From Leptobrachium leishanense (lineage: Eukaryota > Chordata > Amphibia > Anura > Megophryidae): a stretch of 64,000 bases of DNA. This document shows, in pieces, positions 16,735-19,919 of the stretch. The translations under genes and the position numbers were made by a program. Below the pieces are notes generated by a model. That model was not told the origin of the DNA. It did not search any database and was given only the letters and a program-made list of their open reading frames with translations. The DNA is taken from contig CM019072.1 in NCBI GenBank assembly GCA_009667805.1, forward strand, positions 41,422,654-41,486,653, read 5' to 3'. Numbering within the stretch: position 1 is the first letter of the stretch; each line of letters begins with the position of its first letter.

Positions 16735-17500
16735 AGAGTTGAGAGCTCTGTTGAATCACCTGCACTGTTTCCCAAAAATTTCCGGCAAGGACAATCAGAA
16801 ATTCTTGGAACTCAATGACCTTCTCTGGGAGCTGCAGCTGGCCAAGACAGACGCTTAATACCTGACCTCAGCTATCTGGACACTGCACATGGGGTAAACC
16901 CAATAGTTTTCAAGCTGCCATACAATATCCAGGAAAAATGGGCTACACTTGGGGCAAAGTATAAAAGAGTGAACCATATCTCCTTTCCACCTTTCTCCTA
17001 CTTTTGCGAGTTCATAAGGGACATTGCAGAAACAAAGAATGACCCCAGTTTTTCCTACAGTGAGTTCCACGCTTCAGGTTCCCTACCTCAGATGTCCGAC
17101 AGCTCGCACTTTAATCACAGAGGCCGCAGGGGTCCAGTATCCGTGAAGAAGACTAATGTCCTTCCCCCTCCTGCCTCAATTCCTGACAAGTGCAAACAAG
17201 GTGAAAAGATTGAGAATCCTAACCGCCTTTGCCCTATTCATAAGAAACCATATCCCCTCAAAAAGTGCATTGGCTTTAGAAAGAAACCACTCCAAGAGCG
17301 CAAGGAGCTCCTAAAGACATATGGTGTATGTTTCAGTTGTTGTACTTCTACTGAGCTCTTTGCCATAGACTGCAAATTTCCTATCAAGTGCATAGAATGT
17401 GATAGTGTGGATCATGTGCAGGCGCTACATCCATCTCAGTACATGCCTGCAATGTCAACAGACTCCCCTCCTGTGTCAAAAGCACAACAGGCAGACTACA
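16735..17500 (+). pseudogene. BEL/Pao retrotransposon gag region, 5'-truncated
   Basis: Encodes remnants of the structural part of a BEL/Pao polyprotein. Translation shows a DUF1759-like capsid segment (LYN-type motif with LDTAHGVNPIV near 16874-16905 and ISFPPFSYFCEFI near 16979-17015), a basic linker with LCPIHKKPYPLKKC (17230-17270), and a cysteine-rich nucleic-acid-binding region, CFSCC...CIECDSVDH, at 17331-17415. Reading frame changes near 16860 and near 17495 show indels. The first part of gag, the leader and the 5' LTR are missing; sequence upstream belongs to an unrelated MITE. It is plus strand, antisense to the neurexin intron that holds it. Confidence 0.9.
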
Positions 17501-18163
17501 GATCAGGAATTTACTATAGTGTCCTCTTCTTGTACAGCAGTATGTGGTGAAGATCTTTGCGACAAGTCTTCTTCTAAAATATGCTTAGTTAACATATATC
17601 ACAAGAATCACCCAGGAAAGTCTGTTAAAGTATACGCCATCCTGGACGATCAGAGCAATCGGTCCCTCGCAAGAATGGAAATCTTTGATCTTTTCAAATT
17701 AAAAGGAGATTTCTACCCTTATACTTTAGGTACATGTAGTGGCATTACAGAGGTCTCTGGAAGAAGAGCCAGCGGATTCGTAGTAGCTTCTCTTGGGGGC
17801 AATCTGGAATTACCGTTACCCACACTTGTCGAGTGCAACCAGATCCCATCTAACAAGCAAGAGATCCCTACACCAGAAGCTGCCCTACACCATTCTCATC
17901 TGAAGGCTATAGCTAACGAAATTCCAGCCCTTGACAAGAATGCAGATATCCTAATTCTCCTGGGCAGAGATATCCTCAGAGTACATAAGGTACGGCAACA
18001 AATTAATGGTCCATTCGCTTAATGCCTTGATCTAGGTTGGGTTATCATAGGCAATGTTTGTATAAGGAAAATGAAGGTGCCTACCAAGATTTCTTCCTTC
18101 AAAACACACATCTTGCCAAATGGTCGCAACACCTATCTTGAACCGTGCCCACACCAAGATAAA
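17501..18163 (+). pseudogene. BEL/Pao aspartic protease (DUF1758-like) region
   Basis: Continues the BEL polyprotein in frame 2. The retropepsin-like active-site region reads AILDDQSNRSLA (17635-17670), as in BEL/Pao proteases, and the domain closes with ILLGRDILRVHKVRQ and, after a stop, a LGWVIIGNVC motif near 18035-18060. Premature stops are TAA at 18020-18022 (from CAA) and TGA at 18164-18166. The only long open piece is 17399-18022. The protein would have cleaved the Gag-Pol precursor inside particles; this copy is dead. Confidence 0.9.
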
Positions 18164-18430
18164 TGAAATGTCTTTCAGTCCTGGGATAACACCTTTGGAG
18201 CCACAGTGTTCAATTCTACCAATGATGACAACAAACTAGCACTGGCAAGAGAAGATAGGGAATTTCTTAAGATGATGGATAAAGAATTCGCTCAGGATGA
18301 TGCCAATAGCTGGGTAGCACCCTTACCCTTTCGTACACCTAGAGAAAAGCTACCTAACACTATACAGCAAGCAGCTGCTTGATTTGCCTCTTTAAAGCGC
18401 ACCTTAAAGAAGAAAACCGAGGCTGTGAAG
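18164..18430 (+). pseudogene. BEL/Pao reverse transcriptase N-terminal stub
   Basis: Same frame as the protease. Motif SWVAPLPFRTPREKLPN at 18310-18360 and ASLKRTLKKKTE just before the junction are the conserved start of BEL/Pao reverse transcriptases (W-V-A-P-L-P-F, L-P-N, S-L-K-R-T-L). A TGA at 18380-18382 sits where family members have arginine (CGA to TGA decay). The catalytic part of RT, RNase H and integrase, normally about 3 kb, is absent: the frame passes straight into ribosomal protein L6 sequence at about 18407-18443. Confidence 0.9.
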
Positions 18431-19097
18431 AAGGTGAACCGGCACCATGCCAGCCGGAATCCAGTGCTGGTCTGCGGAATCGGGAAATATTCCCGTTCTG
18501 CCATGTATGCCAGGAAAGCCCTCTACAAGCGCAAGTACAAAGCCCCAGAAACAAAGATTGAAAGGAAGAAAAAGGAGAAGGCTAGAGCTACCGTGTCAAA
18601 GACAGTCGGTGGGGGATAAGAATGGCGGCACGCGTGTAGTCAAACTGCGTAAAATGCCTCACTATTATTCCACTGAAGATGTTCCAAGGAAGCTGTTAAG
18701 CCATGGCAAGAAGTTTTTCAGCCAGCACAAACGCAACCTGTGCTCCTCCATCACTCCTGGGACTGTATTTATCATCCTCAATGGACGCCACAGGGGGAAT
18801 CATGTGGTTTTTCTGAAGCAGCTCCAGTCTGGCCTTCTGCTGGTAACAGGACCACTGGTTATCAACCGGGTGCCCCTGCATAGAGCTCACCAGAACTTTG
18901 TTATCGCCACTTCCACAAAAGTCAATATCTCAAGTGTCAAGGTTCTAATGCACCTGACTGATGCTTACTTCAAGAAGAAGAGTCTGCGCAAACCAAAGCA
19001 CCAGGAGGGAGAGATCTTTGAAACAGAGAAGGAAAAATACGCAGTCACACAACAGTGCAAAGCCGATCAGAAGTTTGTGGATTCCAAACTCCTGCCA
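18431..19097 (+). pseudogene. rpl6: Captured ribosomal protein L6 (eL6) coding segment
   Basis: About 217 codons of eL6, a protein of the large ribosomal subunit (about 288 residues in mammals). Landmarks: SRNPVLV (18452), YSRSAMYARKALYKRKY (18487), GGTRVVKLRKMP, YYSTEDVPRKLLSHGKK, SITPGTVFIIL, GLLLVTGPLVINRVPLH, LTDAYFKKKSLRKPKHQ and EGEIFETEKEKYA. By family knowledge it covers roughly residues 43-259; the basic N-terminus, the last 29 or so residues, both UTRs and poly(A) are missing. No introns interrupt it, so it derives from spliced mRNA. One extra G in the G-run at 18610-18615 shifts frame from 2 to 0. Several arginines are changed to Cys/His, consistent with CpG decay. It is embedded in-frame in the BEL element and is not a standalone processed pseudogene. 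Confidence 0.95.
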
Positions 19098-19244
19098 ATG
19101 GGTCTTGTCACTCAGGTTATGCCCAGTGACGATGGAAGAATCTGAAAAGTGAAGGACAAGGTGACTAAAGGAGGTGTTGTACATAGTTTCTTCCGGCCAA
19201 TCACTGAACTGATACTCCTTCTGCCAAGGGAAAAGGTCAGTTAA
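19098..19244 (+). pseudogene. BEL/Pao polyprotein C-terminus (DUF5641-like)
   Basis: Directly after the RPL6 residues the same frame reads GLVTQVMPSDDGRI, a TGA at 19143-19145 (probably from CGA, Arg), then KVTKGG and FFRPITELILLLP, ending with TAA at 19242-19244. This G-V...P-S-D-D-G-R...RP-I-x-x-L-x-LL pattern is the conserved end of BEL/Pao polyproteins after integrase. It follows the RPL6 frame without a shift. Upstream integrase is absent. Confidence 0.88.
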
Positions 19245-19549
19245 GAGTTTCTGCTCTCGGCAGAAGCCTTTCCACAAATAGCCAGTTGGATTACAATTGT
19301 GTTGGTGGAAGTTTTGGCCTAGAGCGGCTTCCCCAGCATGAAGATGGGTTAACTTGTTAAGTTTACTCCTCGCATCTGGAACTATGGCCTACTTTTAAGA
19401 TGTTGACTTAGTTACTGGCTATAAAGTGTAAAGTTGTATTATTGAATGCTTTACCTTTGTTTTTCAGGTCTCTGCATTGGGTTTCCAGGAGGACATTTAA
19501 AATTATAGTGTTAGTTTATTTTGAAATCAAAATATTTCAGACGGAGAGT
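19245..19549 (+). other. BEL 3' untranslated region and polypurine tract
   Basis: Noncoding stretch between the polyprotein stop and the LTR. It ends in a purine-rich run, ACGGAGAG, immediately before TGTCATGACCC, the position expected for the plus-strand primer of reverse transcription. Confidence 0.6.
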
Positions 19550-19919
19550 GTCATGACCCATGACTCAGGGTTTATTTGTATATTTTAATGTTATGTGTTG
19601 AATCTGCTTTTTTCTGCTTGCAGCTATTATTTCATAGCTATTTTGATCCTGCTGGGTTCCCTTAGCCTTGCTGTATCCAGCTAGCTCCACCCCTTTTTGT
19701 TCAGTCTATTTCTGAGGTGCTTACTGGTCACCTAGCAGCCATCTTTGCTCAATGCTGGACAGAACTAATGTCTTTTCATCTGCATTGCTGTACACTATTA
19801 CAAAGATTGTTAGTCTGATCATTAAAGTTTTCAACTAGATTCATCTTTCTACCTGTCAGTTATGCCGAGTTGACACTGTCTGCTGAACTTTCATTGTGTA
19901 AGTACTGGTGAACAGTACA
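19550..19919 (+). repeat. BEL/Pao 3' LTR (solo side)
   Basis: Begins TGTCATGACCCATGACTC after a polypurine tract and ends near GTGAACAGTACA at about 19919, giving the TG...CA ends of an LTR of about 370 bp. ATTAAAG near 19820 could be its polyadenylation signal. No 5' LTR partner is in the window, so ends are inferred from signals and not by alignment of two LTRs. Confidence 0.6.

What the first reader, a model, noticed from the sequence alone, without database searches (positions are those of the whole stretch)
16735..19919. BEL/Pao retrotransposon that carries a host ribosomal protein L6 message in place of pol
Seen: gag, protease and RT start of a BEL element, then about 217 codons of spliced RPL6 in the same sense, then the last 48 codons of the BEL polyprotein, a polypurine tract and a 3' LTR. 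The RPL6 piece lacks both message ends, UTRs and poly(A), and has no flanking target duplication that I can see, so LINE-type retroposition does not explain it. Inference: RPL6 mRNA was packaged in a particle and joined by two template switches, as in oncogene capture by retroviruses. Host-gene capture by a BEL/Pao element is something I do not know to be described.
Basis: partly seen in the sequence, partly recalled or inferred. Interest (0 to 1): 0.92.

Follow-up and report, generated by a model that had tools for sequence, protein, structure and literature searches.

The report
Frog retrotransposon carrying captured ribosomal gene
A virus-like jumping element in a moustache-toad genome swapped its copying enzymes for a piece of a host ribosomal-protein message, kept jumping with borrowed enzymes, and now far outnumbers its own parent; the broken copy read here is one of about two hundred.

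Summary
The window copy (16745-19972) is a truncated, frame-broken member of a multicopy BEL/Pao family in which about 3 kb of pol is replaced by 688 nt of spliced, same-sense host rpl6 coding sequence. In the window's own genome (loci match Leptobrachium leishanense proteins, up to 310 of 310 residues) the 5' junction occurs at 193 places and the 3' junction at 198, reversed controls 0. All 4 fetched copies with both outer LTR ends in hand have 5-bp target duplications, 2 perfect, 2 with one mismatch, so the chimera itself transposed. The RPL6-free parent survives as 6 integrase matches of 91% or more. Both junctions lie inside host exons, in frame, with microhomology (4 nt at 3'; 2 or 7 nt at 5'). 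Best fit: template switching between BEL RNA and rpl6 mRNA, then amplification in trans. RPL6 decays neutrally, as a passenger. Host-mRNA capture by LTR elements is known; the listings I saw showed no BEL/Pao case, but the searches were weak on that point.

The parts
16745..17480 (+). gag remnant with zinc knuckles; 5' part, leader and 5' LTR missing in this copy
   Evidence: L009, L011, L014, L016 and L031 align from 16745 on; P0142 1-127 aligns at 17092-17472, 88%
17483..18160 (+). protease region and linker of the BEL polyprotein, frame-broken
   Evidence: P0142 131-523 aligns 17483-18613 with stops and a gap; BEL copies L052 and L054 match P0142 1-460 at 53% and 60%
18167..18408 (+). start of BEL reverse transcriptase, up to the 5' junction
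   Evidence: Parent copy L063 aligns to 17624-18421 at 84% and then runs on into pol instead of RPL6
18409..18415 (+). 5' junction overlap zone: 7 bases shared by chimera and host rpl6; parent L063 shares them with one mismatch at the third
   Evidence: Three-way comparison of L063, chimeras and host exon; coordinates and the sequence
18409..19097 (+). captured host rpl6 coding segment (host CDS about nt 21-708 of 798), spliced, same sense, with a frameshift in this copy
   Evidence: Alignment to host CDS joined from 6 exons; Pfam and PDB matches
19094..19097 (+). 3' junction microhomology, 4 nt shared by host, parent and chimera
   Evidence: L056, L061, L062 (parents), host last exon and chimeras compared
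19098..19245 (+). C-terminal end of the BEL polyprotein, second part of the DUF5641 domain
   Evidence: DUF5641 profile positions 56-91 and 56-94 on P0005 and P0007, under the cut-off; positions 2-62 at 62 bits on parent L061; tail shared with L056
19246..19548 (+). 3' untranslated region with a purine-rich tract just before the LTR
   Evidence: Sequence; also next to the LTR in other copies
19549..19972 (+). 3' LTR, 424 nt
   Evidence: LTR matches end exactly at 19972 in 8 fetched loci and span 1-424 in L031 and L032; both LTRs of L031 are 423 nt with a target duplication

Best explanation
A BEL/Pao retrotransposon of the moustache toad packaged spliced rpl6 mRNA together with its own RNA. 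During reverse transcription the enzyme left the BEL template in the DUF5641 region for the rpl6 message and returned to BEL in the RT start, at short matches. About 3 kb of pol was thus replaced by 688 nt of rpl6, in frame on both sides. The product kept LTRs, leader, gag, protease and the region before the 3' LTR, so it stayed a good substrate. It spread to about 200 places using RT and integrase supplied in trans by its parent or related BEL families, roughly 10-16 million years ago for the five copies dated (borrowed rate). SHOWN: identical junctions at many sites, LTR-bounded units with 5-bp target duplications in the 4 testable copies, parent copies without RPL6, host gene with introns, microhomology, neutral decay of the RPL6 piece. 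INFERRED: co-packaging, both switches in one event, and supply in trans.
For: Junction counts 193 (5') and 198 (3'), reversed controls 0. Of 23 fetched rpl6-matching loci 22 are chimeras and 1 (L012) an ordinary processed copy. 21 of 22 chimeras join BEL to rpl6 at the same 5' point, L019 and L031 with small local changes; L013 has other sequence on the BEL side. 18 of 22 have the 3' junction motif unchanged, 2 have small changes (L022, L023), 1 a deletion (L020), 1 has lost it (L026). Target duplications in 4 of 4 testable copies, 2 perfect (GGAGG, CCTAT), 2 with one mismatch. 11 downstream flanks compared, no similar pair. RPL6-free 3' ends L056, L057, L061, L062 with the same tail; parent RT start L063 with Pao peptidase PF05380 at 157 bits. 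Junctions lie inside the exon with the ATG and inside the last exon. One open frame of 631 codons crosses both junctions in L009. Tree: chimeras with the window separate from host and L012 with 96% support.
Against: The 5' microhomology is only 2 nt if the template had the base seen in L063, the single parent copy read there (16% of random joins have 2 or more); 7 nt needs another base. The 4 nt at the 3' join would arise in 1.8% of random joins, a simulation on one RT-side parent stretch only. Insertion followed by deletion cannot be excluded. No expression data. Which enzymes mobilised the chimera is not shown. L025 and L028 are 98.7% identical over 1286 nt, so some copies may not be separate old insertions. 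The parent count (DNA search, best 40 scored) and the chimera count (pattern) come from different probes.
Confidence: 0.82

Rival explanations
1. LINE machinery put a 5'-truncated rpl6 copy into a BEL element; a later internal deletion removed the rpl6 3' end, its poly(A) and BEL pol; the BEL copy then transposed.
For: Ordinary processed rpl6 copies exist in this genome: L012 and L036. Internal pol deletions occur in this BEL family: L061 runs from protease straight into integrase.
Against: Needs two events and an in-frame, sense outcome twice; none of the 22 chimeras read has rpl6 beyond CDS nt 714; microhomology at the joins fits template switching.
Confidence: 0.11
2. Read-through or spliced fusion: a BEL copy next to rpl6 gave a BEL-rpl6 fusion RNA by splicing, followed by one 3' template switch, as proposed for retroviral oncogenes (model recalled).
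For: All rpl6 introns are gone, as expected of any spliced RNA route.
Against: The 5' junction is not at an exon start: the exon begins at the ATG itself and the junction lies about 20 nt inside it.
Confidence: 0.04
3. The chimera has become a host or element gene whose RPL6 part is kept by selection.
For: Long open frames in some copies, e.g. 631 codons in L009; 17 public protein entries with the chimera signature; in-frame junctions.
Against: Singleton changes in RPL6 are 202 nonsynonymous, 82 synonymous and 10 stops of 294, against neutral fractions .679.294 and .027; changes shared by 3 or more but under 85% of copies are 31 nonsynonymous to 6 synonymous, 32 of the 37 being C-to-T or G-to-A.
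Confidence: 0.03

Closest known systems
Host-mRNA capture by crocodilian endogenous retroviruses (KIT-ligand in CrocERV29, nectin3 in CrocERV31; PMC4299795, passages seen)
   Same: Vertebrate LTR element carrying a host message in several insertions; nectin3 replaces a viral gene
   Different: Retroviruses, not BEL/Pao; nectin3 replaces env; the passages report purifying selection on the captured frames, here none is seen; six nectin3 insertions in one alligator against about 200 junctions here
Maize Bs1 and LTR-mediated retroposition in metazoans (Tan and coworkers; seen only as described in passages of review PMC5408686; the original is not held)
   Same: Template switching at microsimilarity between LTR-element RNA and cellular mRNA; the review says such copies gain LTRs and may move again
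   Different: Here the chimera became a large non-autonomous family beside a near-extinct parent; whether Tan's cases include BEL/Pao I could not check
[quoted passage not shown]
   Same: Host sequence between LTRs, expansion of some captured genes
   Different: Plants; families and junction mechanism not comparable from the passages seen
Acutely transforming retroviruses (gag-onc fusions; recalled, no call)
   Same: Host message fused in frame after gag at the cost of pol, helper needed
   Different: Infectious viruses; here an intracellular element with a neutral passenger
Processed rpl6 pseudogenes L012 and L036
   Same: Intronless rpl6 in the same genome
   Different: Carry start and end of the CDS; L012 has 3' UTR and A-run and no BEL parts

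Membership tests
BEL/Pao LTR retrotransposons (parent) | Pol with Pao peptidase domain PF05380 | tested here: met
   L063 ORF, 157.2 bits against cut-off 22.3
BEL/Pao LTR retrotransposons (parent) | Integrase and DUF5641 at the C-terminus | tested here: met
   L061 ORF: DUF5641 62.1 bits, over cut-off; rve 27.1 and H2C2 19.4, both under their cut-offs. That DUF5641 ends BEL polyproteins is recalled
BEL/Pao LTR retrotransposons (parent) | Recognisable RT domain by Pfam | tested here: inconclusive
   L063 ORF of 352 aa with the RT start gave no Pfam match at E 0.01
BEL/Pao LTR retrotransposons (chimera) | Two LTRs and a short fixed-length target duplication | tested here: met
   5 bp in 4 of 4 testable copies, 2 of them with one mismatch; that BEL duplications are about 5 bp is recalled
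BEL/Pao LTR retrotransposons (chimera) | Own RT, RNase H and integrase (autonomy) | tested here: not met
   Region replaced by rpl6; hence filed only as a non-autonomous derivative
BEL/Pao LTR retrotransposons (chimera) | Primer-binding site after the 5' LTR | tested here: inconclusive
   Sequence after the LTR looked at in 4 copies; no site recognised
LINE-type processed pseudogene | Message 3' end with poly(A) | tested here: not met
   rpl6 ends inside the last exon in the chimeras read; control L012 meets it
Host-gene transduction by LTR elements | Spliced, same-sense host message between element ends, propagated as one unit | tested here: met
Host-gene transduction by LTR elements | Co-packaging of host mRNA and switching by the element's RT | not testable with these tools
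   Inferred from junction structure
Domesticated gene | Purifying selection on the frame | tested here: not met
   Near-neutral proportions of singleton changes (other parts)

The most novel reading that the evidence does not exclude
The captured RPL6 segment gave the element an advantage during its expansion (for example a Gag-Pro-RPL6 fusion that reaches the nucleolus or binds RNA and helps packaging), which is why the chimera replaced its own parent; the present neutral decay would then only reflect the time after insertion.
Probability: 0.12. Interest if true: 0.9.

Novelty: new variant of a known kind. Interest (0 to 1): 0.74.

Why it matters
One genome holds every player of a host-gene capture: the intron-bearing host gene, remnants of the parent element, both junctions with microhomology, and about 200 descendants. 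If no earlier case exists it extends host-message capture to BEL/Pao; it suggests that a pol-less chimera can outnumber its parent by about thirty to one (198 junction places against 6 integrase matches, different probes); and it bears on how retroviruses acquire cellular genes. It is also a practical warning: public L. leishanense protein sets list such copies as ribosomal protein L6.

Tried and rejected
Rejected: (a) two residues first taken as chimera-specific are not: one is in the host protein unchanged and at the other site the host has the same substitution for the vertebrate residue. (b) L043 looked like a parent because BEL runs on without RPL6; other sequence begins there, a few bases before the junction, so it says nothing about the parent. 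(c) A guessed parental pattern built on recalled BEL residues gave 0 places; a second, partly guessed, gave the 4 parental places. (d) Ten leader-bearing places without a listed junction were probed at one distance: 6 gave no match, 4 gave element pieces (one with RPL6), none a parent. (e) Four downstream stretches of other BELs showed no similarity to the chimera tail or LTR, but may have missed the C-terminus. (f) Stretches upstream of two parental tails held unrelated sequence (L058, L059). (g) IMG/VR search with P0142: no relative. (h) No primer-binding site recognised.

Limits and dropped rows: only the best 40 of 464 first-look candidates were scored; of these the window copy and 23 others were read (20, 3). 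Pattern lists show about the first 100 places; the counts are whole. Tail pattern 135 places, reversed control 0; leader pattern 156, reversed control 1. P0142 and the window's first part (translated in a wrong frame) were left out of the tree; L036 was left out of the tree. Columns with few letters were skipped.
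Full report
What was checked first. The rpl6 match at 18438-19145 is certain (PDB eL6 chains, best E 1e-86; Pfam Ribosomal_L6e and L6e_N). The window itself holds one copy of it. A protein search with this frame returned, among the best 120 of 3565 hits, 13 Leptobrachium leishanense proteins; 13 of 13 show the BEL-type residues after RPL6 and 6 of 13 the strict BEL pattern before it, while none of the other proteins in hand does (141 scanned). 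Later searches added P0121, P0122, P0123 and P0142, 17 in all. With RPL6 masked and only the BEL flanks searched, 8 of 185 candidates scored, all 8 L. leishanense chimeras.

The genome. After several unanswered calls the window's own assembly could be searched: 3,544,805,047 bases, window on contig 10. It is L. leishanense or extremely close: P0005 is found letter for letter (310 of 310) in L024 and P0121 (250 of 250) in L016; 8 of the 17 proteins have identical runs of 140 residues or more in a fetched locus. The published genome of that species is 3.5 Gb with 17.5% LTR elements; 'ribosomal' does not occur in the main text of its paper (PMC6895153, passages).

The chimera is a transposing family. 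The rpl6 piece had 464 first-look candidates; the best 40 were scored and match nearly the whole piece, 91-95% outside the window. The 41-base 5' junction occurs at 193 places and the 40-base 3' junction at 198 with up to 3 mismatches, reversed controls 0. I fetched 23 of the 39 other scored places. One, L012, is an ordinary processed pseudogene with start codon, whole CDS, 3' UTR and A-run and no BEL parts. The other 22 are chimeras, many of them interrupted or missing an end. Copies with both LTRs and little inserted sequence run LTR, leader, gag, protease, RT start, RPL6, tail, LTR over 5.1 to 5.5 kb (L011, L027, L031). Four copies had both outer LTR ends in hand (L011, L019 with L030, L027, L031); all four have 5-bp target duplications, two perfect and two with one mismatch. 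Eleven 3' flanks compared all against all show no similar pair. LTR pairs differ by K 0.045 to 0.073 in five copies, one of them measured on 192 bases only. With a rate that I derived from figures in PMC3136929 (Xenopus Ks 0.292, 63.7 My; passage), 2.3e-9 per site and year, that is about 10 to 16 My; the rate is borrowed and may be off.

Host gene. A search with the RPL6 C-terminus, which the chimeras lack, gave 3 places: two processed copies (L034, the same locus as L012, and L036) and the intron-bearing gene on contig 1. Its six coding exons join to a 265-residue RPL6. Of the 22 chimeras, 17, and the window, align to exactly CDS nt 21-712; L020, L022, L023, L026 and L031 differ at one end or both. 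Both junctions lie inside exons.

Parent. A pattern written to exclude chimeras found 4 places with the same tail but another upstream context. L056, L061 and L062 show BEL integrase sequence leading into the shared tail, and L057 its last part, all without RPL6. L061 lacks RT: protease joins integrase, an internal deletion of its own. A search with its integrase gave, among 40 scored of 511 candidates, 6 places at 91% or more (itself included), one at 75%, and 33 at 68% or less, other BEL families. One of the 6, on contig 5, led to L063 with RT start and Pao peptidase (PF05380, 157 bits); from its positions I estimate about 3.0 kb between the two junction points. So the parent is seen in a handful of remnants against about 200 chimera junctions. 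Other BEL families are abundant: 1486 first-look candidates for PF05380, 150 scored, all over the cut-off, many in long open frames.

Junctions. At the 3' join host, parent and chimera share GCCA. At the 5' join chimera and host are identical from CDS nt 21 on; parent L063 matches the first 2 of these bases, differs at the third and matches the next 4, so the overlap is 2 nt, or 7 if the real template had the other base. In a simulation with one parent stretch and the host CDS, overlaps of 4 or more arise in 1.8% of random joins, 2 or more in 16%, 7 or more in 0.06%. The frame is kept across both joins: in L009 one open frame of 631 codons spans them.

Fate of RPL6. Over CDS nt 22-708 and 23 sequences (22 chimeras and the window), singleton changes are 202 nonsynonymous, 82 synonymous and 10 stops of 294, against a neutral expectation of 67.9%, 29.4% and 2.7%. 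Singletons in the gag, protease and RT-start pieces look alike. Thirteen differences separate at least 85% of the copies from the host gene, 11 of them synonymous, as expected if the host gene alone stayed constrained. The tree unites chimeras and window against host and L012 with 96% support, most inner nodes being weak. About 29 of the listed places share the same two changes at the 5' junction, so more than one source copy was probably active.

Mechanism and standing. Anatomy and parent fit capture by two template switches between BEL RNA and spliced rpl6 mRNA, then spread in trans. Co-packaging, a single event and the identity of the helper are inferred. In print: captures by crocodilian retroviruses (PMC4299795, passages), by maize Bs1 and LTR elements of several animals (review PMC5408686, passages), by plant LTR elements (PMC3726574, passages); extra ORFs in rotifer elements (PMC5408684, passages). 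I ran ten paper searches; bear on this question. The listings (titles and first lines of 10 to 25 papers each, of 17 to 832 that matched) showed no BEL/Pao element with a captured host gene. They are weak evidence: the slash name cannot be searched, the phrase 'bel pao' occurred in none of the papers listed, 'bel' also matches common words, most subscription journals and all preprints are missing, and the Tan paper is not held.

Noticed in passing
window 21156-21344 (-): A neurexin exon (best PDB match neurexin-1-alpha, E 3.7e-36) lies 1.2 kb downstream of the element on the opposite strand, so the copy probably sits in a neurexin intron in antisense.
   Followed up: partly
UniRef entries behind P0001, P0003-P0010, P0013, P0025, P0026, P0075, P0121-P0123, P0142: 17 public L. 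leishanense proteins named after ribosomal protein L6 carry the chimera signature; 8 were traced to fetched copies by identical runs of 140 residues or more, P0005 and P0121 over their whole length.
   Followed up: partly
L061 (G000:C116:77150-78750): A second pol-deleted derivative of the same BEL family: protease joined directly to integrase, with 429 open codons from there into the tail.
   Followed up: partly
L012 and L036: Two ordinary processed rpl6 pseudogenes; L012 ranks fifth of the 40 scored places for similarity to the window piece.
   Followed up: partly
L025 and L028 (contig 4, about 1 Mb apart): 98.7% identical over 1286 nt, far more alike than other copies; recent duplication, conversion or late transposition.
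   Followed up: no
L011 flanks: This chimera copy lies in a tandem-repeat array that continues on both sides.
   Followed up: no
window about 16470-16744: Segment next to the truncation point whose two ends look inverted by eye (GAGCACACT and TGTGCAC motifs), perhaps a short DNA transposon abutting the broken gag.
   Followed up: no
L013: Chimera copy whose BEL side is replaced by other sequence almost exactly at the 5' junction.
   Followed up: no
G000, PF05380 hits: Many BEL/Pao copies with equal scores and open frames up to 2149 codons, so BEL/Pao has probably been active recently in this genome.
   Followed up: no
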